A DNA stretch of 64,000 nt, taken from IMG/VR virus record IMGVR_UViG_3300030004_000001, positions 1 through 64,000 of that record; one strand, given 5' to 3'. The number at the start of each line of letters is the position of its first letter. Within the stretch, counting starts at the first letter, position 1. The translations under genes and the position numbers were made by a program. The notes under the pieces are model-generated. The model searched no databases, was not told the origin of the DNA, and saw nothing but the letters and a program-made list of their open reading frames with translations. Source of the DNA: a virus. Shown in pieces: positions 13,960 through 50,723 of this stretch.

Positions 13960-14962
13960 ATCAATTTTAAAAAATTAACTCTCATCCTTTTAGCAACCAT
14001 ATAAGATGAAAGCACTTGTGATTTCGATATTTGAGATTATGACATCCTCATATACTGGTTCCAAGTTGCCCGGCTTCCAGTAATATCCCCCATCACTCCA
14101 ATTTAGCGCGCTAATAAAAACTATCAGCCCTTGCTTGGCTCCCATTTATTTATAGTAGGGAATCACTTTTAAAATACTAGGACTCATTTTGAGGACTAAC
14201 TTCAGTCAACTCAGCCAAGTCTGATGGCCTATCCCAGCTTAACGTCGGAGCCGATCCCGTTTATTCTTGGCAATTAAAATACGGTTTCTGGATAACCGAA
14301 AACCCAAAGTCCTCATAAGAGGCTATCTGATAAATCCCCAATCTTATCTTTGATTCGATTGGTTCCCATTACTCCATCTACAGATTGTGACTCTGTTTGA
14401 TGTTTCTTGGCAATTAGATATGTCTGCGAGACATTATCTAATCGAGCGCTGAATAAGACCGCAAGGTTGCACCTTGGTATTAGACGGTTTATTCAAATTA
14501 CGCTGTTATGTATTAACGGGAATTCTAATTACCCGTAGCGTAGAGGTTTGCCTTTGATGCCCTCACCGCGCCAACCGCCTAACCGGTTTTAACACTTCGG
14601 CTAATAGCGCGTCAATTAAATCAATTGACCCTTGCAGCCGCTCCCTCTTATTTGTAAGTGGGGAATCACTTTTATTGAGTTGGAGTATTTGCTTTTGCTC
14701 CAACCTATCTTCGGGTGATCGTTGCAACGATCAAGCAGTTACCCTATCGGTTTTCTATTATGACCGAAAACATACCCAATCAATTCTTATCACCGTTCTG
14801 ATTGGGTAAGAACAGGTGAATGCAGGAGACTTCTACATGCTGCCTACGTCAAAGGCAATAAGCCAATGATATCAACAGTTTCCGCTGCAAACGGCGAATG
14901 ATTATAGAACATGTCTTTGCAGGACAAGTCTTTTATCATTCCTTAAACATGTAGAAGTCTCC
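13960..14962 (-). ncRNA. Candidate large ornate ncRNA (~1 kb, GOLLD/ROOL-like context)
   Basis: No ORF and no tRNA in 1 kb, yet packed with helices. The RNA would begin at the promoter at 14959: its first 15 nt GGAGACTTCTACATG pair perfectly with CATGTAGAAGTCTCC ~115 nt later. More stems: TACCCAATCA/TGATTGGGTA, GATCGT-TGCA-ACGATC, GTTGGAG/CTCCAAC, GTCAATT/AATTGAC, CAAGGT-GCA-ACCTTG, ACGGG/CCCGT, ATTAGATA/TATCTAAT. Two ~75-nt modules repeat (14105-14175 and 14595-14680), and AATTGCCAAGAA occurs twice. Size, tRNA-cluster position and complexity match the known giant phage RNAs; I cannot match a covariance model by eye. Confidence 0.6.
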
Positions 14963-14977
14963 ATATATCTTATAACA
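14959..14977 (-). promoter_or_regulatory. Extended -10 promoter block (copy 1)
   Basis: Minus strand TGTTATAAGATATATGGAG, nearly the same as copies at 18647 and 36186. No good -35. GGAG is the likely 5' end of the ~1 kb RNA. Confidence 0.6.
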
Positions 14978-14981
14978 GAAT

Positions 14982-15389
14982 TTACTCAGTTTTTGCAGAA
15001 TCCTTGAGGAAATACTTTTCGGATCGCCTCAAAAACCTTTTAAAGTGCTTCTGAACGGATTCGGGAATCTTATAAGCTCCTTCATTCATTCTGTCAATGG
15101 CCCTAGACTCAGCTTCCTTCTTTGTATATCGATCACGCTTATTGCAGAGAGAGAAGCCAACAACTACCTGACCATTAACCTTATCAGAAATAAGAACTCC
15201 AATAGGATTGCGATTGTAAAGACAATTCAGAATATCTTTGAGATCAGCCTGAATCTCATTAATTTGTGCAGCATTATCAACATTAAGTACTGGCAGATCA
15301 TCGATCAATGCCATAATATCGACGACCTTTCTTTCAATCACTTCAGGATTGAAGTTCTTCTTGTTATGACGGACGTATTCCTTGAGCAT
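14982..15389 (-). CDS. Hypothetical helical protein (135 aa)
   Basis: The longer frame runs into tRNA-Arg, so the start is the ATG at 15389 (MLKEYVRHNKKN) with SD AGGAG 7 bases upstream. Mostly helical and charged; a segment NPIGVLISDKVNGQVVVGFSL forms the only beta part. C-terminus very basic (KRFLRRSEKYFLK). Codon use is richer in C/G than flanking genes. No family recognised; it stands alone between tRNA-Arg and the large RNA. Confidence 0.65.
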   Translation of the reverse strand: MLKEYVRHNKKNFNPEVIERKVVDIMALIDDLPVLNVDNAAQINEIQADLKDILNCLYNRNPIGVLISDKVNGQVVVGFSLCNKRDRYTKKEAESRAIDRMNEGAYKIPESVQKHFKRFLRRSEKYFLKDSAKTE

Positions 15390-18646: not shown

Positions 18647-18665
18647 CTCCATATATATTATAACA
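18647..18665 (-). promoter_or_regulatory. Extended -10 promoter block (copy 2)
   Basis: Minus strand TGTTATAATATATATGGAG, preceded by a T-run; identical to the copy at 36186. Divergent from the sigma-gene promoter 27 nt away. Confidence 0.65.
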
Positions 18666-18691
18666 AAAAAATGGTGTTTTTTGCGAACATG

Positions 18692-18700
18692 TGTTATCAT
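18692..18700 (+). promoter_or_regulatory. Extended -10 promoter of the sigma-like gene
   Basis: TGT-TATCAT ends 7 bases before the ATG at 18708; no SD fits, so the transcript may be leaderless or nearly so. Confidence 0.45.
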
Positions 18701-18707
18701 AGAACTT

Positions 18708-19379
18708 ATGTCGAACGAACTGATTCTACAATACCAGAAAGATCCAACGAATAAAGAAATCGAACAGAAATTACTCGATATGCATGGATCTTATATTAAA
18801 GCCAACATTAATAAATGGGCCGGGATAGTCCCTGATATAATCATTCATTCATATGGTAAGAAATATGCGTTAGATGCTTTCAAGACTTATAATCCAATTA
18901 AAGGATCCATTAACACCCATCTATATAACAATATCTCCCAACTCTCCAGACTAATCTATCAACACCAAAATGCAATTCGCTTACCAGAGCAACAGATACA
19001 GTTAATCGGAAAAGTTAATGCATCTAGAGATATTCTAACTGATGAATTGGGCCGTGAGCCAACCACAGAAGAAATAGCTGATAATTTATCTTTACCAAAA
19101 GCACATATAGCTAAAGTAATTAGAAATCAAAGAGCAGATTTTCTAAATGATTCTGATACAGATATGCAACATGCTTATGGTGATCATGATAATGAGATAG
19201 GAAATAAGATATTTCAATTTAGACAGACTCTGAATGATACAAGAAAAGATCAATTTGATAGTTTTACAGGATATAACAACGTAACTCCATTAAGTCCTCA
19301 ACAATTTGGTTTAAAATTTAAACTTAAACCTTACGAAGTATCAAGACTTAAAACATTATTTGCTAAAGGGTTAAAATAA
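18708..19379 (+). CDS. Sigma70-family-like transcription factor (223 aa)
   Basis: Region 2-like core ALDAFKTYNPIKGSINTHLY (~45-64), then RLIYQHQNAIRLPEQ and a region 3 typical of sigma factors (ELGREPTTEEIADNLSLPKA, ~116-135). The C-terminus (PQQFGLKFKLKPYEVSRL, ~198-215) reads as a weakened region 4 helix-turn-helix. Phage sigma-like proteins of this type redirect RNA polymerase to phage promoters. ATG 18708 preferred over an upstream TTG that would overlap the -10. TAATG overlap with the next gene. Natural partner: the fused RNAP at 23579. Confidence 0.75.
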   Translation: MSNELILQYQKDPTNKEIEQKLLDMHGSYIKANINKWAGIVPDIIIHSYGKKYALDAFKTYNPIKGSINTHLYNNISQLSRLIYQHQNAIRLPEQQIQLIGKVNASRDILTDELGREPTTEEIADNLSLPKAHIAKVIRNQRADFLNDSDTDMQHAYGDHDNEIGNKIFQFRQTLNDTRKDQFDSFTGYNNVTPLSPQQFGLKFKLKPYEVSRLKTLFAKGLK

Positions 19380-20521: not shown

Positions 20522-20933
20522 TTTAGATATTACAAATAGAGATTTATACGGAAATGTGACTTTTTTATTAAAGTCTGCTAGAGTTTATGGTATCGAAAAT
20601 GTAATTCAGAAAGTAACTACTTGTTTGTTATCATCCAAGAAAACTACTTATTTTGGTAATATATATGGCAGCGATGCATTACAGGCTGGTAAATATAATT
20701 TTAATGCAGATGGAGTTACAGATTTTAAATTACAAATTACAGATGATTTAGTAAATATTAAAAGTTCTATTCAAACTGATGAAACTACATATAACATTCC
20801 CGTAGCAGATAGATTAAAAGATATAGCTATTCAAGACGTAGTATTTGATAATACAACTTTAACAGTAAGTTTATCATTGTTAATTTCTACTAATTCTGCT
20901 TCCACTATTATTCAATTGCCGGTGAAATCGTGA
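20508..20933 (+). CDS. gp25/GPW-like baseplate wedge protein (141 aa)
   Basis: Layout fits the gp25-like family: an early YGIENVIQKVTTCLLSSKK stretch (~24-42), then FGNIYGSDAL, and a C-terminal beta part with PVADRLKDIAI. In contractile-tail phages gp25 forms part of the inner baseplate wedge. The next gene is J-like, the usual neighbour. Overlaps it by 4 nt (GTGA). Confidence 0.6.
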   Translation: MTTINLDITNRDLYGNVTFLLKSARVYGIENVIQKVTTCLLSSKKTTYFGNIYGSDALQAGKYNFNADGVTDFKLQITDDLVNIKSSIQTDETTYNIPVADRLKDIAIQDVVFDNTTLTVSLSLLISTNSASTIIQLPVKS

Positions 20934-22615
20934 ATTCAACAGATCTGATTAAATTTTCAACTGATGTATTACAAGCAGATTCTAATTATGCTAATGTAGA
21001 TTTATCTACATCAGGTGCATTTTACAATTTAACCATTCTACCATTTTCGGTTTTAACAAAGCCATTAAGAGATTTGATTAATTCAAATATGAACGCATTA
21101 GCATTAGGAACTATGACTAGTGCTCAATTAGATAGTTGGGCTACTAATTTATTTCTTACACGTAGAACTAATAATTTAATGACCGTAGCTATTACAATTT
21201 ATTTAACAAATAGTACAGAAACGATAGAACCTTTAATGGTCTATACTACTGATACTTTTACTACAAATCAGAATAAGATTTTTTATCCAATTCAAGATTA
21301 TATTTTTATATTTAGTTCATTACCGGTAGATTCAACAGGTAATTATAGATATGCTACCATTATTGCATCTTCAACTCAGGATTATACAGTTACAGCAGCT
21401 AATACAATTAAATCAACTTCTTTAACTCATCCATCACTTTCTTATGTTACAAATGCGGCAGCCTCTTCAACTCCAATTGAGGCTCAAACAGATACAGACT
21501 TTATAACAAGTATTCAGTCTGCAATATCCGCACGAAATAATACTACCGCAAATGCAATTTACACTAATTTAGAAGCTGCATATACTTCAATAACAGATAT
21601 TTTAGCTATTGGATATAATGATCCTGAAATGCAGAGAGATATCGCTGTTGCAGCGCGTGATTGGTCGGGTCACTTTGGTGGAATGACAGATATTTACGTT
21701 CGCACTCCACTGACTGCTGTGACGGCTACGGTTACGGGCACTAGAAATTCTACCAACAATGGCTACACTTTTATTCTTCGTAAATACGCAGGTTATGATT
21801 GGGATTCTATTGATGACTCATCACCCACCCCTCTCTCATTAACCCCCTGGATTGCTGTAACTTCTACTAATCCATTACCTTCAATGCCTATAGTATTATT
21901 TGACTGGGCAGATACAACAATAACTAACACAACTATAACTACAGCGACCAATGGATTACCAAATGTATTAGTTGAAGTAATGCCAGATCCAGAATTAAAT
22001 GCATATGGTAAAAATTATCGTTATTCAATATATGAAAATCTTAGAATAACGGTTTATACAAACACAGCAGTAAATTCTTCTGAAACAATTGTATTAGCCT
22101 ATTCTACTTTATCAAATATTGAAGATATGCAAACATATATGAACTCTTCAGTTGCTAGAGTTTTAACTTCTAATAATTTAGTAAAATCTTTCCTTCCAGT
22201 TGAGATAAAGGATTTGACTATTGTTTATGATTCTAGTTATACTGTAGATACGACAACGTGGGCAACTACTCTTGCTGATTTAATTAATAGCTGGTCATCA
22301 ACTCAACCAATTAGATTATCTACATTATTAACCGATTTCGTAGCTCCAGTTCGTTTGGATGAAGTGTGGAGTGATACAACTTCTTCATTACCATATACTT
22401 TTGATAGTAATGGCAATATTACTGGAACTAATGTTTCAACATCTTTTCCTTCTTACATAACTATGTCATTAAATAATATAGATGGTTCTTTTCAATATTA
22501 TATTTCTACTAGACAGATTTATCCAATGGTCAAAACTGGATTATCTTCAACTTATAGAACTTGTCGTTATTTTGTAGATTCTTCAAATATTCATTTTGTA
22601 GCGGGGACATGGTAA
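20930..22615 (+). CDS. Baseplate J-like protein (561 aa)
   Basis: GTG start overlapping the preceding stop. Contains the J-family pattern: an N-terminal helical part, a beta-rich middle and the block EAQTDTDFITSIQSAISARN followed by helix and AIGYNDPEMQRDI. J-like/gp6-like proteins form the baseplate wedge ring in contractile tails. A patch at ~21640-21860 uses more GC-ending codons than the rest. Confidence 0.65.
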   Translation: MNSTDLIKFSTDVLQADSNYANVDLSTSGAFYNLTILPFSVLTKPLRDLINSNMNALALGTMTSAQLDSWATNLFLTRRTNNLMTVAITIYLTNSTETIEPLMVYTTDTFTTNQNKIFYPIQDYIFIFSSLPVDSTGNYRYATIIASSTQDYTVTAANTIKSTSLTHPSLSYVTNAAASSTPIEAQTDTDFITSIQSAISARNNTTANAIYTNLEAAYTSITDILAIGYNDPEMQRDIAVAARDWSGHFGGMTDIYVRTPLTAVTATVTGTRNSTNNGYTFILRKYAGYDWDSIDDSSPTPLSLTPWIAVTSTNPLPSMPIVLFDWADTTITNTTITTATNGLPNVLVEVMPDPELNAYGKNYRYSIYENLRITVYTNTAVNSSETIVLAYSTLSNIEDMQTYMNSSVARVLTSNNLVKSFLPVEIKDLTIVYDSSYTVDTTTWATTLADLINSWSSTQPIRLSTLLTDFVAPVRLDEVWSDTTSSLPYTFDSNGNITGTNVSTSFPSYITMSLNNIDGSFQYYISTRQIYPMVKTGLSSTYRTCRYFVDSSNIHFVAGTW

Positions 22616-22616
22616 T

Positions 22617-23264
22617 ATGAAAGCTTCTGAATTTTTAATGGCAAAAGCATTAGAACATGATGATTTTCAATTAACTAAAATTGCTCAGGATTTATATGGT
22701 ACTGAGGAAGATATTGATTATATCGATAAAGAAGCTGGAATTGCATCAGGTTTATTAGCTGCTGGTTCGCAATTACTTAAAAGTAACGTAATTAGAAATG
22801 CTGCTATTGGTGCAGGGGTAGGTAGTTTAACTGGCGCTGCTTCTGCACAGTCAGGTAATAGATTGGCCGGAGCATTTAAAGGTGGATTAATTGGTGCTGT
22901 TACTGGTGGTATTGGAAGTGCTAGTACTAATATTTTAAAGACTATGAAAACTCCAGGAGTTACGTTCAATAGGGCTTTAGCTCAAGAAGGTAATAATATT
23001 ACCGCAGTAGGAACTAAGGCTAGTAGAGCATTCGATATTGGTCGTTCAAATAGAACTTTCTTAAATAGACCTACTCCAATGGGAACTTCAATTCCAGAAT
23101 CTGCTCCAAAAGTTATATTACCAACTCCAACTAAAGATGAGGCAATAAAGGCTGGATTTGGTAGTCCTATCGAACCTCCATTACCCGCTGCTGGAGCAAC
23201 TACTTTACAACAGCCAGCTACTAAAAATTCTATCTTTAAACCAAAACCATTACTGAGAAGTTAA
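22617..23264 (+). CDS. Glycine-zipper membrane-active virion protein (215 aa)
   Basis: After a charged N-terminus (MKASEFLMAKALEHDD) comes a Gly/Ala-rich zone at ~40-105 with GxxxG spacing (AAIGAGVGSLTGAAS, FKGGLIGAVTGGIGS), typical of glycine-zipper pore or ejection proteins. The C-terminal third is Pro-rich and disordered (PILPTPT-like). Likely packed in the virion and inserted in the host membrane during entry (inference from composition and place). Confidence 0.55.
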   Translation: MKASEFLMAKALEHDDFQLTKIAQDLYGTEEDIDYIDKEAGIASGLLAAGSQLLKSNVIRNAAIGAGVGSLTGAASAQSGNRLAGAFKGGLIGAVTGGIGSASTNILKTMKTPGVTFNRALAQEGNNITAVGTKASRAFDIGRSNRTFLNRPTPMGTSIPESAPKVILPTPTKDEAIKAGFGSPIEPPLPAAGATTLQQPATKNSIFKPKPLLRS

Positions 23265-23266
23265 AT

Positions 23267-23566
23267 ATGTCATTAGTTAAGTTAGCAGCAATGCCGCTTT
23301 TAGTAATAAATAATTCGGATCCTAATGCTGGATCTTCTAAAACGTTTAATGGCAAAAATGTTGCTGCTGCTGCGGTTGGTGGAACAACAGGTTTTGCATT
23401 AAGCGATGCCATTGAACATACTAAAGGTTTTGATGAAACTAAATTATTACATAGATATGGTAAAAGAATGGGTTCTATTGTTGGTGGTTTTGCTGGTGCT
23501 GCTGGAACTTATACTCTTTTACATAAAAAGCAGAAAGAACAAGAACCTAAATTCTATATGCTTTAA
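23267..23566 (+). CDS. SLVKLAA-motif glycine-rich membrane protein (99 aa)
   Basis: Starts MSLVKLAAMPLL. Two Gly/Ala-rich hydrophobic stretches (VAAAAVGGTTGFALS at ~32-46 and SIVGGFAGAAGTYTLL at ~70-85) suggest membrane insertion; C-terminus basic. It lies 12 bp upstream of the RNA polymerase gene, so the two are surely co-expressed. Unknown role, possibly virion-associated. Confidence 0.6.
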   Translation: MSLVKLAAMPLLVINNSDPNAGSSKTFNGKNVAAAAVGGTTGFALSDAIEHTKGFDETKLLHRYGKRMGSIVGGFAGAAGTYTLLHKKQKEQEPKFYML

Positions 23567-23578
23567 TTAAGGGTCGTG

Positions 23579-26500
23579 ATGAATCATCAGATAACTAAAG
23601 AAAATACTCAACCAATTATTGATGTTATTCATAATAACATTAAAGAGATTTTTCCTTTAACTGTAGGTAATAAAACTATAGAAGTAAAGAATATAGAGAC
23701 AGTTGGTTGGGATAAGGCTGATCCAACCAACTATTATGATATTGCTAATGCAAAAGCACACGATAAGACTTACGGGGTAAATCTAGTCGCAGATGTAGAG
23801 TTATCCCAAGATGGTAAAGTAATAGATAAAAAGAAAATGAAATTAGCTACAGCACCGGTAATGGCTGGTGATGGAACTTTCATTGTTGGTGGATCACAGT
23901 ATCAAGTTGATCATCAGTTAAGATTGCGGCCCGGTATTTATTCTCGTATTAAACAGAATGGCGAAATTGAAGCACATGTAAATCCAAATGGTTTTAAAAA
24001 TTTACGTTTAGCCGTAGACCCCGCTACAAAGAAATTAACTGTAAATGTAAATCAGGCAAATATTAATGCTATTCCAGTATTAAGAATTCTTGGTATTTCT
24101 GATACTGAAATTAAAAAATCATTTGGTGATGATGTATATGATGCTAATATTAAAATTCTTGGCAAGAAGGGTGATGAAGAAATTAAACGTTTCTTTAAAT
24201 CCGTTCATCCTTATGATGAATTACCGGAGACTAATAAGTTAATAGCAGAACATTTATCTCTCTCACTAAGAGAAGCTAAACTAGATCCTAAAGTAACTAA
24301 AATTACATTAGGTCAAGAATATGATCACGTTAATGGAAATGCTTTATTAAGAGGATTTCAGAAAGTAATTAATGTTTCTCGTGGAACTGAACAACCTGAT
24401 GATCGTGATGCATTAGCATTTAAAACTATTCATTCAGTTGAAGATTTTGTTAATGAACGATTAAAGAAAAATAAGAAATCAATTCAATTTGCTATTCAGA
24501 ATAGAATGCGTAAAAATGATAAACTTGATCAGATTATGAATTCTGGTCATATTAATCAGCATGTATTCTCATTTTTTAATTCTGCTGCACTTTCAGAAAT
24601 TCCTTCACAGATTAATCCATTATCAGTAATTAATAGTTCATTTAAAACTACTATTACTGGTGAAGGTGGTATTGAAAATGCAGAATCAATTATGCCAGAA
24701 TCTCAAGCCTTACATCCTAGTCATTTAGGATATCTTGATCCAATCAATACTCCTGAGTCAAAAAAGATTGGTGTTACTTTAAATTTAGCTATTGGAACTA
24801 CTAAAAAAGGAAATGAACTTCTCAGTAAATTTAGAAACATAAAAACTGGTAAAGAAGAAGATATTTCAACTATCGATGCTTATCATAAAGTTATTGCTTT
24901 ACCCGGTCAAGAATTAAAAGGTCAAGTAACTGCTATTAAACATGGCAAACAAGTAGAAGTTGATGCTAGTGAAGTTACTCATGAGCTTCCTAATGCCTAT
25001 TCGGCCTTTACTATGGCTTCTCAGGCATTACCTGCAATGAATCATAATCAGGGTAATAGAGCTGGAATGGCCTCTAGACATATTAATCAGGCTATCTCAC
25101 TTAAACATCGTGAAGCACCTTTAGTTCAAGTTCAATCACCACTTTCCAAAGACATGAGTACTGAAGAATTTTTTGGTAAAAAATTCCAAATTGCGCTTCA
25201 TGCTAGAAATGAAGATGGAATTATTCAAGATATTACTAAATCACATATTATCTTTAAAGGTGATAGTGGTAAGGTATATGAATATCCTATTTTTAATAAT
25301 TTTGATCTACAAAATAAATCTTATTTACATCATGAAATTGAAAATCTTAAAATAGGCGATAGATTTAAAAAGGGTGATCTTATTGCCGATTCTAATTTTA
25401 GTAAAGGTGGCGTATTGTCACTCGGAACTAATCTTCGAACTGCTTATATGCCATGGAAAGGTTTAAATTTTGAAGATGGCATTGTAGTATCCGAATCAGC
25501 AGCTAAAAAATTAACTTCAAATCATTTATTTCAAGATAATATCGATAAAGATAATGATTCGGTATTAGTTAATAAAAGAAAATTTGTAACCTTATATCCA
25601 TCTAAATATACAAAAGCTCAATTAGATAAAATTAGTGATAATGGAATAGTAAAGGAAGAAGTTACTTTACAACCAGGGGATCCTTATGCTTTAGTATTAC
25701 ATAAGGCTCAGGGGACTCAAGAAGATCTTATGTTAAATAGATTACATAAATCTCTTGTACAACCTTATAAAGATATGTCTAAAACTTGGGAACAGTTAAC
25801 TCCCGGAAAAATTACTAGATCAGTAGAAAATACCAGAAATGTAAAGATTCATGCTAAATATGAAGCACCTGCAATTATAGGTGATAAACTTGCATTAAGA
25901 CATGGTAATAAGGGAGTCATTACCTCAATAGTTGCAGATAAAGAAATGCCTACTACTAAAGAGGGTAGATCTACCGAGGTATTAATTAGTCCCTTAAGTA
26001 TTGTTACTCGTATGAGTCTTGGTCAAATGTTGGAAAATTCTGCAAGTAAAATTGCAGAAAAAACTGGTAAACCTTATATTATTGAAAATTTTTCAAAAGA
26101 TAATCAATTAGAAAAAATTAAAAATGATTTAAAGAAACATAATATATCGGATACGGAAGAATTATTTGATGAACATGGAAATTCTTTTGGACAAGTGTTA
26201 GTAGGAAGTCCATTAATTGAAAAATTATTTAAGACTGCAAAAGCTAACGTTTCCGCTAGAGACAGTGGTGCCTATGATATAGATAATAAGCCAATTAAGG
26301 GTGGTGAGGATGGTTCGAAGGCTATCGACCAATTGACTCTTTATGGCTTATTATCGCACGGTGCGCGAGGCATTATTAATGAGGTTAGCACGGTCAAGGG
26401 TGATGGAAACGCCCAGTTTTGGCAGAATCTCCAAAATGGCTTACCCATACCTAAACCTCAAGTTCCATTTGTATATAAGAAATTTGAAGCAATGCTTCAT

Positions 26501-29500
26501 GCTGCTGGTATTAATGTTAGACATGATGGTTCTAGAAAAATATTATTACCTCTAATTGATTCTCAAATAGATGAATTAGCTGGAGATAACGAAATTGAAT
26601 CTTTTGGTATGTTAGATCATAATTTTGAACCAATCAAAGATGGGTTGTTTGATCGTCATACAACTGGTGGTTCAAATGGTGATAAATGGGCAAAAATTAC
26701 ATTAGCTCATCCATTAGTTAATCCAATGTATGAAAATGCTGTCAAAACCATCTTAGGTCTTAAGGACTCTGAATTTAAAACAATTATAAAATTGGAAGGT
26801 GGTCATGATAAAATTAAAGGAATGTTGGCTAATCTCAATGTTCATGAGCAGATTGATAATCTTACGGCAGGTATCAAGACTGCGCCGAAAACTAAAAAAG
26901 ATAAGCTGGTTAAACAACTTAAAATTTTCAAGTCACTTGATTCACTCAAGCTCTCTCCCGTTAACGCTTATATTACTTCCGTGGTTCCGGTTGTCCCTCC
27001 TACTTTCAGACCTATCTTTGAAATTCCCGGTGGGCATGTACAAACACATAGTTTAAATAATTTATATAGAGATTTGGGTTTAATTAATAATACTATCAAA
27101 GAGCTTGGACGTACTCCTGAATTGACAGATGCACTTTATAATTCTCTGGGTGCAATTCAGGGTGTAAATAATCCAATTACTAAACAAAATGAAATTAAAG
27201 GTGTTAAGGGTGCCATTCAAATTATCACAGGATCTGGTTCACCTAAATATGGGTTCTTTCAAAATAAAACATTACGTAAACAACAGGATTTATCAGGAAG
27301 AGCAACTGCTGTATTAAATAATAATCTTAATATGGATCAAATTGCTATTCCTGAAAAAATTGCTAAAGTAATTTACAAGCCATTTGCTATTAAAGAATTA
27401 ATTAAAAATGGTTATAGTTATCAAGAATCTGTAGATCATATAGATCATTTAGATAATATTGGAAAAAAGGCTGTTCAAGCTGCGATGTCAGATCGTCCAG
27501 TGTTAATGAATCGCGCTCCATCATTACATAAATTTTCAATTATGGCATTTCAGCCAACATTAACTAAAAATCTTTCTATTGAAGTTCCAGGGCTTATCGT
27601 TAAACCTTTTTCATTAGATTTTGATGGAGATACATTAGTTCTGCATGTGCCAGCTACCGAAAAAGCACGTAAAGAATCTTTTGGATTAATGCCAAGTAAG
27701 AATTTATATAATCCTAGAATGCGTACTTTAAATTATGCTCCAGATCAGGGAGCTATTCTAGGATTGCATTTACTTTCTCAAACTGAAGAAGGTTTAGTTA
27801 AGATAAATGATTTATTTCCAAAAGATATTTTGCCTATTGGTTCAAAAATTACTAAAAAGATGGTGGATAAAATACTTGCAAATTTAGCAGAAAAGTATCC
27901 AGAAAAATATAATGAAATTACTACCAAATTAAAACAAATGGGCGATACTTATGCTACTAAAGCAGGATTTTCTTTATCCTTAGCAGATCTTCCTAATAAT
28001 TCTAAAGAAGTTAATAAAGAATATAAATCTGCTGTAGGTTTATTAAAATCAAAATCATTAAGCGATGAAATTAAACTAAACGCTTTACTTAAAGCTGATA
28101 AATTTATTAAAGATAATGCATTAAATGACAAAACTAATAATTTTGTGACTATTGTAGCTTCTGGTTCTAGAGGATCGTCTGAACAGATAAAACAGATGTT
28201 ATTTGCCCCTGGAGTTATGAGTGATCATAATGGAGATCCATTACTTCATCCAGTTTTAACTAATTATTCACAAGGTATGCCCTTTAACGATTATTGGACT
28301 ACTTTATATTCTGCACGTAAAGCTGCTTTAGATAAACAGTTAATGACTGCTAAACCTGGCGCTTTAAATAAAGAGGTAGTAAATACTACAATGAGTATTG
28401 TAATATCGGAAAATGATTGTGGAACTAAATTAGGTATTCCTATGAATACCGATGATAATAATCTTGTAGGAAGATATTTAACGAATGGCACATTAGTGAA
28501 TAAAAGTAATATAGAATCTATACGTGATAAACATAAAGAAGTAATAGTTAGATCACCTACCACCTGTAGGGCATCACATGGGATTTGTCAGAAATGCTTT
28601 GGTATTGATGAATATGGTAAACTTCCAGATATTGGTCATAATGTTGGAATTAAATCAGCTCAAGCAGCAACAGAACCTTTAACTCAGGCAGCTATGAAAA
28701 CTTTCCATATGGGTGGAACGGTTTCTGGTGGTGGTGGTGTATTTGGTGGTTTTGAACATGTCAATAATTTTCTCGTTTCTCCAGAAACTTTTAAAGATCG
28801 AGCTACGTTATCAAAATTAGATGGAAAGATTACAAGTATAACTCCAGGGTCTGCCGGTGGTTTCCATGTTAATGTAAATGAACAAGATCATTTTATAACT
28901 CCTGGCTCTGGTAGTCTTAAAGTTAAAGAAGGTGATAAAGTAAAGAAAGGCGATTTATTAAATAATGGTATTCCTCATCCTAAAGAAGCTATACATCTTT
29001 TAGGTGAATTAGGTGGGCTTCATAAAATTACAGAGACTCTTCATAATATTTATAAAAATTCTGGCATTTCTATTGATAGAAGAAATTTAGAGACAATTGT
29101 TAGAGGTATGACAGGATTTGGAATAGTAGAAGATGAAGGAACTCATAAACATTTCGTAAAGGGAGATGTAGTACCTTTAAGTCAAATTTATGAATTTAAT
29201 ACAACAACTAATAAATCCTATAAATTACCTTTAAATGATGCTTTTGGAAAAAGTTTAGATGAAAATATCGGATCTTTTAAAATTGGAAATATAGTTAATT
29301 CTAATATGATTAAATCTTTACAAAAAACACATAAAGAAATTACTGTAAAGGAAAATCCTGTAACTTATGAACGTACCTTACTGGGAGTACAGCAAGCACC
29401 ACTTAAGTCTCACGACTGGGCTAATCAGCTTGCTTTCCGATATCTCAAACGTGGTTTGCAGGAAGGATCAACTTATGGTTATTCTTCAGATGTTCATGGA

Positions 29501-29563
29501 TATTCTCCTATAGCTCCATTTGTTACTGGTCAAATGGAAGATGGACCAGAAGGAAGATATTAA
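23579..29563 (+). CDS. Single-chain fused RNA polymerase beta-beta' (1994 aa)
   Basis: One uninterrupted frame holds both large subunits of cellular-type RNAP. Beta part: GTFIVGGSQY (~98), GYLDPINTPESKKIG (~384-398), MPWKGLNFEDGIV (~624-636), GDKLALRHGNKG (~768-779), TRMSLGQMLE (~811) and a C-terminal anchor YGLLSHGARGIINEV (~922). Beta' part: KDGLFD (~1020), ITLAHPLVNPM (~1040), VPPTFRPI (~1139), LSGRAT (~1238), LNRAPSLHKF (~1308), catalytic DFDGD (1347-1351), zinc site ENDCGT + TTC-GIC-KC (~1611-1673), EPLTQAAMKTFHMGG (~1700, trigger-helix region). The N-terminal beta' zinc finger is missing. ATG 23579 chosen over GTG 23576 by SD AAGGG. Transcribes phage genes, perhaps from within the virion. 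Confidence 0.93.
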   Translation: MNHQITKENTQPIIDVIHNNIKEIFPLTVGNKTIEVKNIETVGWDKADPTNYYDIANAKAHDKTYGVNLVADVELSQDGKVIDKKKMKLATAPVMAGDGTFIVGGSQYQVDHQLRLRPGIYSRIKQNGEIEAHVNPNGFKNLRLAVDPATKKLTVNVNQANINAIPVLRILGISDTEIKKSFGDDVYDANIKILGKKGDEEIKRFFKSVHPYDELPETNKLIAEHLSLSLREAKLDPKVTKITLGQEYDHVNGNALLRGFQKVINVSRGTEQPDDRDALAFKTIHSVEDFVNERLKKNKKSIQFAIQNRMRKNDKLDQIMNSGHINQHVFSFFNSAALSEIPSQINPLSVINSSFKTTITGEGGIENAESIMPESQALHPSHLGYLDPINTPESKKIGVTLNLAIGTTKKGNELLSKFRNIKTGKEEDISTIDAYHKVIALPGQELKGQVTAIKHGKQVEVDASEVTHELPNAYSAFTMASQALPAMNHNQGNRAGMASRHINQAISLKHREAPLVQVQSPLSKDMSTEEFFGKKFQIALHARNEDGIIQDITKSHIIFKGDSGKVYEYPIFNNFDLQNKSYLHHEIENLKIGDRFKKGDLIADSNFSKGGVLSLGTNLRTAYMPWKGLNFEDGIVVSESAAKKLTSNHLFQDNIDKDNDSVLVNKRKFVTLYPSKYTKAQLDKISDNGIVKEEVTLQPGDPYALVLHKAQGTQEDLMLNRLHKSLVQPYKDMSKTWEQLTPGKITRSVENTRNVKIHAKYEAPAIIGDKLALRHGNKGVITSIVADKEMPTTKEGRSTEVLISPLSIVTRMSLGQMLENSASKIAEKTGKPYIIENFSKDNQLEKIKNDLKKHNISDTEELFDEHGNSFGQVLVGSPLIEKLFKTAKANVSARDSGAYDIDNKPIKGGEDGSKAIDQLTLYGLLSHGARGIINEVSTVKGDGNAQFWQNLQNGLPIPKPQVPFVYKKFEAMLHAAGINVRHDGSRKILLPLIDSQIDELAGDNEIESFGMLDHNFEPIKDGLFDRHTTGGSNGDKWAKITLAHPLVNPMYENAVKTILGLKDSEFKTIIKLEGGHDKIKGMLANLNVHEQIDNLTAGIKTAPKTKKDKLVKQLKIFKSLDSLKLSPVNAYITSVVPVVPPTFRPIFEIPGGHVQTHSLNNLYRDLGLINNTIKELGRTPELTDALYNSLGAIQGVNNPITKQNEIKGVKGAIQIITGSGSPKYGFFQNKTLRKQQDLSGRATAVLNNNLNMDQIAIPEKIAKVIYKPFAIKELIKNGYSYQESVDHIDHLDNIGKKAVQAAMSDRPVLMNRAPSLHKFSIMAFQPTLTKNLSIEVPGLIVKPFSLDFDGDTLVLHVPATEKARKESFGLMPSKNLYNPRMRTLNYAPDQGAILGLHLLSQTEEGLVKINDLFPKDILPIGSKITKKMVDKILANLAEKYPEKYNEITTKLKQMGDTYATKAGFSLSLADLPNNSKEVNKEYKSAVGLLKSKSLSDEIKLNALLKADKFIKDNALNDKTNNFVTIVASGSRGSSEQIKQMLFAPGVMSDHNGDPLLHPVLTNYSQGMPFNDYWTTLYSARKAALDKQLMTAKPGALNKEVVNTTMSIVISENDCGTKLGIPMNTDDNNLVGRYLTNGTLVNKSNIESIRDKHKEVIVRSPTTCRASHGICQKCFGIDEYGKLPDIGHNVGIKSAQAATEPLTQAAMKTFHMGGTVSGGGGVFGGFEHVNNFLVSPETFKDRATLSKLDGKITSITPGSAGGFHVNVNEQDHFITPGSGSLKVKEGDKVKKGDLLNNGIPHPKEAIHLLGELGGLHKITETLHNIYKNSGISIDRRNLETIVRGMTGFGIVEDEGTHKHFVKGDVVPLSQIYEFNTTTNKSYKLPLNDAFGKSLDENIGSFKIGNIVNSNMIKSLQKTHKEITVKENPVTYERTLLGVQQAPLKSHDWANQLAFRYLKRGLQEGSTYGYSSDVHGYSPIAPFVTGQMEDGPEGRY

Positions 29564-29832: not shown

Positions 29833-31572
29833 ATGTCCTTAAACGAATTATTCGTCTTAAATTCATCCATTCGTTTATCGGCTGATATGAATAGTTGGGG
29901 CGATCAAGTTATAAGCCAACTTATTAAATCATATCCGTCGCTCTCAAGTTTGGTGGGAGAAGTTGTTTTCGCCAAGACCGATACCGTAAAAGGTAATGCA
30001 TTGGGATACATTACTTTAATCGGTAAAGTTCAGAGGATTCCATTTATTGTCGATGAATATGATCTAAATCCATTAGACATATATATAGACAATGGTAAAT
30101 ATCTACCTCTTTCAGAAAGAGCAGTTAATAGTTTAAATTCTAGAACTTGGCCCTTTCGTCTTATATCCCAAACAGAAAGAAATGGAATTCTTAAGACTGC
30201 TTCGTTATTCGAGAATAATGGCATTTTGAAGGCAGAGTTTGTAAAAAAGAATAAAGAAACTTTTGAAAAAATTGCTGCTGAGTTTCCAGAAATTTTAGAT
30301 AACTTTACTATCCGCAATACTCAGAAGGCCAATTCTGAATTTGCAGTACGTTGTTTTATTAAAGAAGCCGCAGATGCAAAACCAATTGTGGTCCGCGATC
30401 TTATTGCTGAAGATAAAGATTATAAAATTTCAGAATTTGCTGATAAATTCGGAAAAGATTTTCTTTCTGAATTAATGAGTAAGGGTGAAGCTATTGTTTC
30501 AAATATGCCTCCTAAAGTTAGATTAGCAATTGATAGTATGGAAATTAAGGGACTTTATAAAACTTCTGAAAATAGAGAAGGTTATCTTTGGCATAATGGA
30601 ACTCCAATCGTAGCCAAGAGATTTGATCATTATCGTATGTCTGATTTAAAACGATCATCTATAGCTCCCTCTATTATTATAACAGAATGTGGCAAGTATT
30701 TTCAAAATGGAACATTAACAACTAAAGATGCCGGCAACGTTCCTAAGCATAAAGATAAGGTAGCTCCACAAAATGGTGATTATGCAGTAATTACCATTGG
30801 AGATAGTTGCTTTGGTCCATTTTTTATTAATAGTATTACAAAAATGGGTGCTGATAAAATTTACAATATTACTACTGATGAATTAAAAGTAGTAAATCTT
30901 AAGACTAGTGAAGATATTAAAACTATAGTACAGTTAGATGAGAATAATTATTTATTCTCACAGAATGCTCAGATTTTTAAAATTCATGTATCTGATATTG
31001 AGAATCCAAAAGATTTTGTTAAATCTGCTGGTTTGAAAGTTTCAGTATCAAAGCAGTTAGATGGTAACTTCTTAATTAGTGATTCTGGAATTTCTGGAAT
31101 AGATTCTAATAAACTGAAAAATTTAAAGAAGGGTGATGCTACGGTAGTTTTAATGCATTGTGGCTTATCTGAGACAGATGCTAAATATGCCCTGATGCGG
31201 GCATTAACTAATAATACTTATTCTTTTGATGCACCAGAAAAACAGAAAGTTTCCTCAGATAAAGATGTAACCTTAGAAAAGAAGGCTGAGGAAATTGTAA
31301 GTTACTGTAATGAAAATGAAGTATTAAAAATGGCCGCTGTGAGTGGCGATAAATCTAACGTGGATTTAGCCTTGGGACTTAATTTAATTAATTATAGTAA
31401 TATTAAACGATTTAAATTAATAGTTCCAGAAATTTATACTATGTTAGATAAATTATGTAAATTACTAATTATTAAGCGCATTAATCGTAATTTATTTAAC
31501 TTAGATGATACTCAACTTTCTCAAGCCATTCGCGCTTTGGACGAGATTTCGTTTGCCCTTAATTCCTTGTGA
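29833..31572 (+). CDS. Large protein of unknown function downstream of RNAP (579 aa)
   Basis: SD GGAG ten bases before the ATG, after its own promoter and a 230-nt leader. Starts MSLNELFVLNSS. N-terminal ~110 residues are mixed (VGEVVFAKTDTVKGNALGYI, RIPFIVDEYDLNPLDIYI), the middle is Lys/Asp-rich alpha/beta, and the last ~80 residues are helical. No enzyme motif. Forms a pair with the next gene (GTGA overlap). Lying between the RNAP and RNR it could be an RNAP accessory or inner-virion protein. Confidence 0.6.
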   Translation: MSLNELFVLNSSIRLSADMNSWGDQVISQLIKSYPSLSSLVGEVVFAKTDTVKGNALGYITLIGKVQRIPFIVDEYDLNPLDIYIDNGKYLPLSERAVNSLNSRTWPFRLISQTERNGILKTASLFENNGILKAEFVKKNKETFEKIAAEFPEILDNFTIRNTQKANSEFAVRCFIKEAADAKPIVVRDLIAEDKDYKISEFADKFGKDFLSELMSKGEAIVSNMPPKVRLAIDSMEIKGLYKTSENREGYLWHNGTPIVAKRFDHYRMSDLKRSSIAPSIIITECGKYFQNGTLTTKDAGNVPKHKDKVAPQNGDYAVITIGDSCFGPFFINSITKMGADKIYNITTDELKVVNLKTSEDIKTIVQLDENNYLFSQNAQIFKIHVSDIENPKDFVKSAGLKVSVSKQLDGNFLISDSGISGIDSNKLKNLKKGDATVVLMHCGLSETDAKYALMRALTNNTYSFDAPEKQKVSSDKDVTLEKKAEEIVSYCNENEVLKMAAVSGDKSNVDLALGLNLINYSNIKRFKLIVPEIYTMLDKLCKLLIIKRINRNLFNLDDTQLSQAIRALDEISFALNSL

Positions 31573-32396
31573 TAAATTATCCTTTCCATAAACTGCTTTT
31601 CTATCTTCTGGTAATTGCAAAATTCCGTAGGGTAGAGTATGCCAGTTTATTGAATACATACTTACCATCTATTAAATTTGATTTCGAAGATCCTTTTGAA
31701 TATATTCAGAAAATAGTCAAGGAAATTCCCTTACCTGCTGGAGTATATTCAAACAAAGAAGATCCTTCTAGTTTAATTATTTACTTAAGTAGATTTAAAC
31801 TAAGAGAATTACATACAGTCTTCAATCAGGAACAATTCGAAGATATAATTTTCGATACAGATCTGAGACGTAAAATAGATGCAATGGCACTGTCTCCATC
31901 TTTTCGAAAAATTGATATTATAAGAGAATTCCCTTCTATCAATCATGAATATATTGAAATTTATTTAGATTGTTTTGCTAATTTCGACCAGATAGATAGT
32001 CGAAATATATATGTATCTAAATATATTGGTGATCCATCAGAAAGATCTTTATTAATTAAAGTATTGACTACCACATCACGAATTCACTTAAAAACCATTT
32101 TAGGTATTAGAACTAATTTAGATCCAAAGACAATTATTGAGAAATCATTAAGCGTTATGGATATGAAATCTGATTTAGCTTTAATTAATGAAGATGATGA
32201 CAAATTAGAAAGATGGACTAAATTAAGAATATCTATTGCAGAGAAATTAATTAAAATGGGCGCTGGTAGTAAGACAGACCTCGATAATCTCATGGAAGCT
32301 TTAAAGGCCGAACCTGATTTTAAAGATCCAGTAATCTATACTAAAGAAGATTTAGAAAATGAATTTAGTCAAGCTAAAGATGAGTTACCTTCATAG
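31569..32396 (+). CDS. Hypothetical protein (275 aa)
   Basis: GTG start overlapping the previous stop (GTGA), so translationally coupled. Helical and charged throughout; acidic C-terminus (KEDLENEFSQAKDELPS). No membrane segment or motif recognised. Presumably works with the 579-aa protein upstream. Confidence 0.6.
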   Translation: MINYPFHKLLFYLLVIAKFRRVEYASLLNTYLPSIKFDFEDPFEYIQKIVKEIPLPAGVYSNKEDPSSLIIYLSRFKLRELHTVFNQEQFEDIIFDTDLRRKIDAMALSPSFRKIDIIREFPSINHEYIEIYLDCFANFDQIDSRNIYVSKYIGDPSERSLLIKVLTTTSRIHLKTILGIRTNLDPKTIIEKSLSVMDMKSDLALINEDDDKLERWTKLRISIAEKLIKMGAGSKTDLDNLMEALKAEPDFKDPVIYTKEDLENEFSQAKDELPS

Positions 32397-36185: not shown

Positions 36186-36204
36186 CTCCATATATATTAT
36201 AACA
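36186..36204 (-). promoter_or_regulatory. Extended -10 promoter block (copy 3)
   Basis: Minus strand TGTTATAATATATATGGAG, identical to copy 2, with TTTT before it; its GGAGG doubles as the SD of the gene at 36178. Confidence 0.68.
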
Positions 36205-36284
36205 AAATAACATCAATTATTGCATATTCAAAAAATGTGTCACACGTAACTTTCCTGTTACCACTATCTTGACGTAAACATTCG

Positions 36285-50300: not shown

Positions 50301-50723
50301 CTAATCACTTGTTAATAGAAAGTTTTGAAAATCTTCTTTTGATGATGGTATTAAGTTAACCGTTATTTCTTTATATGAAGTTTTCAACCAGTCATTATTT
50401 TTATCCTTTTCGAAATAGTTAAGAAATGATTTAATTTTATCCCGTGAAGTAGCTGACGAACTGCTAATTAACTTCACATATGTATTATAACAAAAACTAG
50501 GCTCTTTTTGCAACTTGATAATTTTATACTTAATATTAGTAATAGCTTTTAATTTATCAATTAGATTTTCTTCAAATATAGTAGAACTATAATTATGAAC
50601 TAAAATTTGCTTTGGTTTATATCTATAAATAATAATAATGTGTCCGTCTCTAAAAACTTTAATAGATTTTTGATTTAAGGAAAGTTGAAGCAATTTCTTA
50701 AACTGGTCAATCTTTTCTTTCAC
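50301..50723 (-). CDS. Hypothetical basic protein (140 aa)
   Basis: GTG start overlapping the clamp-like gene's stop (TAAGTG). Lys/Ile/Asn-rich alpha/beta; N-terminal helix (MKEKIDQFKKLLQLSLNQK), beta hairpin GHIIIIYRYKPKQILV. Unknown function; last gene of the replication operon. Confidence 0.55.
   Translation of the reverse strand: MKEKIDQFKKLLQLSLNQKSIKVFRDGHIIIIYRYKPKQILVHNYSSTIFEENLIDKLKAITNIKYKIIKLQKEPSFCYNTYVKLISSSSATSRDKIKSFLNYFEKDKNNDWLKTSYKEITVNLIPSSKEDFQNFLLTSD

What the first reader, a model, noticed from the sequence alone, without database searches (positions are those of the whole stretch)
23579..29563. RNA polymerase beta and beta' fused in one phage protein
A single ~1994-residue frame carries conserved blocks of both catalytic subunits in cellular order, including DFDGD, the beta NTPE block, the second beta' zinc site (four Cys kept) and the trigger-helix block. 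Phage multisubunit RNAPs known to me are split (phiKZ, AR9) or strongly diverged single chains (YonO, crAss gp66); this one keeps many cellular-type motifs. The first beta' zinc finger and most of the clamp start are deleted at the joint (~950-1030).
Basis: partly seen in the sequence, partly recalled or inferred. Interest (0 to 1): 0.88.

Follow-up and report, generated by a model that had tools for sequence, protein, structure and literature searches.

The report
Phage one-piece RNA polymerase with own sigma
This phage encodes the two catalytic halves of a bacterial-type RNA polymerase as one 1,994-residue protein, alongside a sigma-like factor and a strand-restricted set of candidate promoters, in a family of fused polymerases found in many uncultured phages, which suggests these phages carry a compact transcription machine of their own.

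Summary
Confirmed. ORF 23579-29563 (+) is one intact 1,994-aa frame. Residues ~1-980 are a β-like half and ~980-1994 a β′-like half, with the key catalytic residues conserved. The first β′ zinc finger is cleanly absent; most of the clamp start is not.

It is not a singleton. One IMG/VR scan confirmed 422 stretches encoding relatives. Of 103 records analysed, 86 (a few redundant) carry a single full-length ORF. Of 81 family members scorable, none has the first zinc finger; 63 of 65 bacterial RpoC do. In Salmonella phage Arash and Vibrio phages D69/D181 the chain is broken inside β′, not at the β/β′ border. The clade is monophyletic (100/100) against the bacterial and other phage RNAPs sampled.

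Best reading: a σ-dependent virion RNA polymerase. A σ70-like gene lies 5 kb upstream in the same structural-gene run, and 27 of 31 long records carry a σ70-region-3 match. No α or ω was found. A promoter-like motif (CAA-N15-TGnTATAA) lies only on the strand opposite the polymerase in five related phages. In Arash, published mass spectrometry finds the RNAP as the most-detected virion protein, plus the σ. Packaging and promoter use by the fused form are inferred, not shown. I found no description of this family in the papers searched.

The parts
23579..29563 (+). fused beta-beta' RNA polymerase, 1,994 aa, one frame
   Evidence: 86 of 103 family records carry a full-length single ORF
23579..26533 (+). 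beta-like half (residues 1-985)
   Evidence: AlphaFold2 model pTM 0.69; Foldseek to bacterial beta E 3e-63, TM 0.68-0.70 normalised by the query
24587..24670 (+). rifampicin-pocket segment, residues 337-364; gapless against E. coli 510-537 with Q513E, D516S, H526S, R529K, S531T: predicted rifampicin-insensitive
   Evidence: the insensitivity is an inference
25442..25480 (+). AYMPWKGLNFEDG block (residues 622-634), equivalent to the beta E813/D814 region
26516..26758 (+). beta/beta' joint (residues ~980-1060): beta C-terminus runs directly into beta'; first beta' zinc finger absent near residue ~1030
   Evidence: CxC...CxxC present in 0 of 81 family members versus 63 of 65 bacterial RpoC
26519..29563 (+). 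beta'-like half
   Evidence: model pTM only 0.40, but Foldseek to bacterial beta' E 8e-50
27617..27631 (+). catalytic DFDGD, residues 1347-1351
28283..28378 (+). bridge helix, residues 1569-1600
28418..28597 (+). second beta' zinc site, C1614, C1663, C1670, C1673
   Evidence: all four invariant in alignment A2
28673..28753 (+). trigger helix/loop, residues 1699-1725; the ~187-residue E. coli trigger-loop insertion is absent
18681..19379 (+). sigma70-family-like protein, 232 aa as called (likely ATG start at 18708)
   Evidence: Pfam Sigma70_r3 1e-7, over cut-off; PHROG sigma factor 5e-5; homologous to Arash virion sigma gp10, E 2e-17
20930..22615 (+). structural (baseplate-like) protein homologous to Arash virion protein gp13, upstream in the same gene run
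   Evidence: E 2e-11; 'baseplate-like' is inferred
22617..23566 (+). two small glycine-zipper-like proteins immediately upstream of the polymerase (215 and 99 aa); role unknown
   Evidence: Pfam matches weak, below cut-off; the 99-aa one has a similar protein at the same place in L005 by reading the sequences
29833..32396 (+). two proteins of unknown function downstream (579 and 275 aa), with similar proteins downstream in L005, L006 and L007 by reading the sequences
   Evidence: no significant Pfam or PHROG match
14962..14995 (-). promoter-like motif (CAA-N15-TGTTATAA...ATATATG)
18650..18683 (-). promoter-like motif
36189..36222 (-). promoter-like motif
50477..50510 (-). promoter-like motif (inside a called minus-strand ORF)

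Best explanation
The protein is a catalytically competent DNA-dependent RNA polymerase in which beta and beta-prime became one chain. It is made late together with virion proteins, packaged with a phage sigma70-like factor, and injected with the DNA. There the core + sigma holoenzyme transcribes the early/replication genes from a phage-specific promoter (CAAwA about 18 bp before TGkTATAA) that lies only on the early strand. Covalent linkage of beta and beta-prime replaces the bacterial need for the alpha dimer to bring the two subunits together, and the beta-prime zinc-binding domain has been dispensed with. Shown: the fusion, the conserved catalytic set, the zinc-domain loss, the sigma-like gene, no detectable alpha or omega, the motif set and its strand restriction. 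Inferred: catalytic activity, packaging in this phage, the sigma-core pairing, the assembly role of the fusion, and promoter use.
For: Catalytic residues conserved, with conservation across the family. Polymerase and sigma lie on the + strand with terminase, head protease and tail/baseplate-type genes, while DNA polymerase, helicase, ligase and nuclease lie on the - strand. Sigma70 region-3 matches in 27 of 31 long records, 20 over cut-off. No alpha in this phage (control rings in 13 of 14 genomes) and no credible alpha and no omega in 17 records; the record has a 127-bp exact terminal repeat, so it is probably complete. Motif: 18 copies in this genome, all on the - strand, 0-1 in each shuffle. 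The CAA-N15-TGNTATAA pattern is strictly opposite to the polymerase strand in five phages: 19/0, 10/0, 5/0, 6/0, 3/0. In Arash (35 sites) and D69 (25 sites) the hexamer is mostly TATAAG and all sites are on the - strand. In Arash, virion mass spectrometry gives RNAP gp206 3,516 spectra (the most of any protein), gp216 1,210 and sigma gp10 467 (PMC10585845).
Against: Virion data come from a relative whose enzyme is split and ~30% identical, and its authors note the protein could be left over from expression in the infected cell. The window sigma has no significant region-2 match. The strict motif was found only in this phage's close relatives and in D69/Arash; in the other ~25 family records it is absent or at noise level. 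TGTTATAAT in this phage resembles a host extended -10 element. The C-half model is weak (pTM 0.40), and the two halves were never modelled together.
Confidence: 0.66

Rival explanations
1. Non-virion polymerase: host RNAP transcribes early genes from the extended -10 motif, and the fused enzyme with its sigma is made in the cell and transcribes middle or late genes.
For: TGnTATAAT is a good host-type extended -10 in this phage. A few + strand genes have TTGACA-type promoters, so host RNAP probably contributes somewhere.
Against: Polymerase and sigma lie among late-type structural genes; Arash virions contain both in quantity; in Arash and D69 the strand-restricted hexamer is mostly TATAAG, a poor host -10.
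Confidence: 0.2
2. The sigma-like protein redirects host RNAP to phage promoters, and the fused polymerase works without sigma, as crAss gp66 and N4 enzymes do.
For: Many phages use their own sigma with host RNAP (own knowledge; PMC7598289 says so for jumbo phages without RNAP); this sigma is small and diverged.
Against: Sigma70-region-3 matches accompany the polymerase in 27 of 31 records; in the window phage and L005 the sigma gene sits in the gene run leading to the polymerase, and in Arash both are in virions. The beta-prime clamp helices that bind sigma region 2 in bacteria align, though shortened.
Confidence: 0.08
3. Assembly error, frameshift or decaying gene.
For: Metagenome assembly; in-frame stop in L015/L024 and probable frame breaks in L020 and L029.
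Against: Full-length single ORFs in 86 of 103 records and codon-position conservation through the joint.
Confidence: 0.01

Closest known systems
Salmonella phage Arash gp206 + gp216 and Vibrio phages D69/D181 RNAP (annotated as beta subunits or hypothetical)
   Same: Same clade (100/100), beta fused to the N-terminal part of beta', sigma homologue (Arash gp10), similar promoter architecture on the opposite strand
   Different: beta' C-terminal third is a separate gene 0.6-5 kb away; D181 also carries a group I intron in the beta part
mReC phages (Weinheimer & Aylward 2020, PMC7481178)
   Same: Phage RNAP still recognisable by cellular beta/beta' profiles
   Different: Described as beta and beta' subunits with no fusion reported, and a Gp23-type capsid (PF07068); among 30 records searched PF07068 is found only in L034, which has separate genes. 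Whether some mReC contigs belong to the fused family could not be checked
crAss-like phage phi14:2 gp66
   Same: Single-chain two-barrel virion RNAP
   Different: So diverged that COG0085/0086 profiles do not detect crAss RNAPs (PMC7481178); the present protein matches Pfam RNAP domains at up to 3.5e-39
P23-45 gp64/gp96 (PMC10770324) and YonO
   Same: Single-chain two-barrel phage RNAPs
   Different: Chaban et al. place single-subunit phage RNAPs in a clade separate from cellular-type enzymes; gp96 is fused to the tape measure protein and lacks a clamp
phiKZ/AR9 virion and non-virion RNAPs
   Same: Phage RNAPs independent of host alpha and omega
   Different: Four or five polypeptides; AR9 beta matches only at ~24% identity over ~18% of the query
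Helicobacter/Wolbachia RpoB-RpoC fusions
   Same: beta and beta' in one chain in cellular order
   Different: From own knowledge: cellular enzyme, ~2,890 aa in H. pylori, working with alpha. Their sequences were not compared here

Membership tests
Cellular-type two-barrel (beta/beta') RNA polymerase | DxDxD catalytic motif, bridge helix, trigger helix, beta catalytic lysines | tested here: met
Cellular-type two-barrel (beta/beta') RNA polymerase | beta' N-terminal zinc-binding domain of bacterial enzymes | tested here: not met
   0 of 81 family members versus 63 of 65 bacterial RpoC
Cellular-type two-barrel (beta/beta') RNA polymerase | Separate beta and beta' polypeptides with alpha2 and omega | tested here: not met
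   single ORF; no alpha or omega found
mReC | Deep phage clade in the RNAP tree, described as beta and beta' subunits | tested here: inconclusive
   The fused clade is distinct from the one mReC-like record identified, L034; the published mReC sequences could not be fetched
mReC | Gp23-type major capsid (PF07068) | tested here: not met
   no match in the window genome or other fused-family records; present in L034
crAss-like virion RNAP | Sequence too diverged for cellular RNAP profiles | tested here: not met
   Pfam E-values down to 3.5e-39
phiKZ/AR9-type RNAP | beta and beta' divided over four or more polypeptides | tested here: not met
Virion RNA polymerase | Polymerase present in virions and injected | not testable with these tools
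   Virion detection only in relative Arash
Virion RNA polymerase | Gene expressed with late/structural genes | tested here: inconclusive
   genomic position among structural genes; expression not measured
sigma70-family factor (window:18681-19379) | sigma region 3 | tested here: met
   Sigma70_r3 1e-7, over cut-off
sigma70-family factor (window:18681-19379) | sigma region 2 | tested here: inconclusive
   no PF04542 match in G000; a diverged region 2 is suggested only by reading the sequence
Helicobacter/Wolbachia-type RpoBC fusion | Full-length beta joined to full-length beta' | not tested
   No sequences of those fusions were retrieved; length comparison rests on own knowledge

The most novel reading that the evidence does not exclude
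A large phage lineage carries a single-chain cellular-type core polymerase which, with one small sigma70-like protein and without alpha or omega, forms a complete two-protein virion holoenzyme that reads its own, host-orthogonal early promoters. That would make it the most compact sigma-dependent cellular-type transcription system known to me.
Probability: 0.5. Interest if true: 0.78.

Novelty: new variant of a known kind. Interest (0 to 1): 0.62.

Why it matters
Single-chain phage RNAPs are known, but those described are strongly diverged from cellular enzymes. This family keeps the cellular β/β′ catalytic core in one chain, comes with a σ70-like protein, and has a candidate promoter set, so questions about α-free assembly, the function of the β′ zinc domain and σ-core co-evolution become testable with a two-component system. 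It may also be useful as an orthogonal polymerase. The Arash/D69 branch, where the chain is cut inside β′ rather than at the β/β′ border, bears on how RNAP subunits fuse and split. Cultured members (Arash on Salmonella; the Vibrio phages D69/D181) mean experiments could start now.

Tried and rejected
Assembly artefact or frameshift: rejected by 86 full-length ORFs and codon-position conservation.

Simple equation with mReC: not supported, but not excluded, since mReC sequences could not be retrieved. A further scan with a NADFDGD-clade alignment (A5) listed no contig from the mReC reference metagenomes 3300017989 or 3300000786 among its best 80.

The k-mer scan of upstream regions first gave pieces such as GGACCTTT and ATCCAGTT that look like tRNA fragments; the tRNA cluster lies among those regions, so they were set aside. 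A first pass of the motif script failed on an empty seed set and was redone. L007's genome gave no convincing motif: 24 weak matches on both strands.

A first count of zinc-finger cysteines was invalid for bacteria because the HMM envelope cut the domain off; redone on whole ORFs.

The σ search by an HMM limited to ±10 kb loci found only 4 loci; a Pfam search of whole records was the right test.

Comparing window 29833-31572 with the Arash portal protein gave no homology. The PF00940 search was uninformative because the control did not ring. One Rfam call was over the size limit, one Pfam call had a coordinate error, and the crAss RNAP paper is not held.
Full report
THE OBSERVATION. The ORF at 23579-29563 (+) is a single open frame of 1,994 aa. 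Pfam finds β domains (Rpb2_3, Rpb2_6) in its first half and β′ domains (Rpb1_1, _2, _4, _5) in its second half, in cellular order (Rpb1_1 is below the curated cut-off and Rpb1_3 is not significant). phmmer against the PDB returns bacterial β′ chains at 5e-82. A residue map against E. coli shows the key catalytic positions kept: DFDGD 1347-1351, R1312, bridge helix, trigger helix MKTFH 1706-1710, four cysteines of the second zinc site, and β E632, D633, K770, K778, R811; β R687 and H1237 are not kept. The first β′ zinc finger is gone.

STRUCTURE. AlphaFold2 on the β half (13-sequence alignment) gave pTM 0.69, and Foldseek matched bacterial β over most of its length, E 3e-63, TM ~0.68-0.70 normalised by the query. 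The β′ half alone modelled poorly (pTM 0.40), though Foldseek still found bacterial β′ (E 8e-50, TM ~0.33). The 1,200-residue limit prevented a joint model, so the assembled crab-claw shape is not demonstrated.

A FAMILY, NOT A SINGLETON. IMG/VR holds close relatives with the same fusion at 70, 58 and 49% identity. An alignment-based scan confirmed 422 relatives, of which the best 80 loci were fetched. Of 103 records analysed (a few are duplicates), 86 carry one full-length ORF of 1,903-3,192 aa (stop-to-stop lengths). The longest ones contain intein-like insertions, most beginning with Cys and ending HN, GN or SN at conserved motifs; at the DFDGD site of L033 the aligned insert begins differently. 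None of 81 scorable family members has the first β′ zinc motif, versus 63 of 65 bacterial RpoC. The active-site motif is NADFDGD in 67 of the 88 fused or split rows; the window has the rarer SLDFDGD.

CULTURED RELATIVES ARE SPLIT ELSEWHERE. In Salmonella phage Arash and Vibrio phages D69/D181 (~30% identity), β and the N-terminal part of β′ through DFDGD are one ORF, and the β′ C-terminal third is a second gene. In D181 the β part is further interrupted at residue 488/490 by a group I intron (Rfam RF00028, 101 bits) followed by a homing endonuclease, so that break is an intron and not a fission.

PHYLOGENY. IQ-TREE (LG+F+R5) on concatenated β+β′ puts fused and Arash-type enzymes in one clade (100/100) apart from 14 bacterial RNAPs, from four other phage RNAPs (Carin-5, YerA41, Rhizobium TM30, L034) and from the fused ORF L110. 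Relations among the window group, the Arash-type group and the rest are unresolved (46.5/49), so whether the Arash split is ancestral or derived is open. No archaeal outgroup was available. L110, a 2,039-aa fused ORF in a Candidatus Jettenia MAG contig, branches with the bacteria and looks like a separate fusion.

GENOME CONTEXT. The record is 157,395 bp with a 127-bp exact terminal repeat, so it is probably complete although the database classes it as linear. The + strand carries terminase (phrog_675, 2e-55), a head protease, tail/baseplate-type genes, the σ-like gene and the polymerase. The - strand carries DNA polymerase (phrog_405, 4e-226), helicase, ligase and nuclease, with one minor-tail-like exception.

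σ, α, ω. window:18681-19379 matches Sigma70_r3 (1e-7) and is homologous to Arash gp10 (E 2e-17). Region 2 is not significant in this phage. Of 31 long records searched (including L034, which is outside the fused family), 27 have an r3 match at E<=0.01, 20 over cut-off. α was not found in this genome; across 17 records the only α match at E<=0.1 was a 27-aa fragment interrupted by stops, and no ω match was found.

PROMOTERS. A de novo search found 18 copies of a 36-bit motif (GCAAaA...TTTTGTTATAATATAtATG), all on the - strand, versus 0-1 per shuffled genome. The reduced pattern CAA-N15-TGNTATAA occurs 19/0 here, 10/0 in L005's phage, 5/0 in L006's phage, 6/0 in D69 and 3/0 in Arash, always on the strand opposite the polymerase; seven other records have one to four matches, near the reversed-pattern control, and the rest have none. 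PWM searches give 25 sites in D69 and 35 in Arash, all -, with the hexamer mostly TATAAG. An unusual last base in the -10 hexamer argues against host σ70 in those phages; in this phage the hexamer is TATAAT, so host use cannot be excluded. The pattern was not found in the distant family members, which may use other promoters.

VIRION EVIDENCE. In Arash particles, RNAP gp206 was the most detected protein (3,516 spectra), with gp216 (1,210) and σ gp10 (467) (PMC10585845). The authors note such enzymes could instead be left over from high expression during infection. Nothing here shows packaging of the fused form itself.

MECHANISM. The most economical account is a virion holoenzyme made late, packaged, injected, and used for early genes, as established for φKZ vRNAP and crAss gp66. 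Here it would use a σ70-like factor and a covalently joined β-β′ core. The idea that fusion substitutes for α-driven assembly is inference.

NOVELTY. Searches of open-access papers found no description of this family. Subscription papers and preprints were not searched. I therefore file it as a new variant of a known kind.

Noticed in passing
L025, L026, L033 (RNAP ORFs): Intein-like insertions in fused RNAPs at conserved sites (window residues 393, 646, 940, 1351, 1707); L033 has three, including one at the catalytic DFDGD motif, giving a 3,192-aa ORF.
   Followed up: partly
L003:4485-4765: Group I intron (RF00028) interrupts the polymerase gene of Vibrio phage D181, with a homing endonuclease ORF after it; a second group I intron lies at L003:688-895.
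   Followed up: yes
L110:1572-7691: A 2,039-aa fused beta-beta' ORF in a Candidatus Jettenia MAG contig that branches with bacteria, apparently an independent fusion.
   Followed up: partly
window:32502-35008: B12-dependent ribonucleotide reductase in two adjacent ORFs; the second contains an intein-like insertion at the NPC/GEI site.
   Followed up: no
window:47630-48709: TnpB/IS605 OrfB-like protein (Cas12f1-like_TNB, 6e-24) in a phage genome.
   Followed up: no
window:11326-18163: Cluster of 13 tRNA genes on the minus strand.
   Followed up: no
window:53706-54605: Recombination-directionality-factor-like protein (Gp3-like, 2e-25); integrases were not searched for.
   Followed up: no
window:19756, 22617, 23267; L005; L007: Several small neighbouring proteins begin with a shared M(S/I)(L/I)(V/I)KLA-type N-terminus, possibly a targeting or processing signal.
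   Followed up: no
L015 and L024, position 12212: One in-frame TGA inside an otherwise intact fused RNAP, at the same position in two contigs.
   Followed up: no
L035:7425-8105: Arash virion protein gp7 (226 aa) shows weak similarity (E 6e-6) to the beta' bridge/trigger region although gp216 already encodes that part.
   Followed up: no
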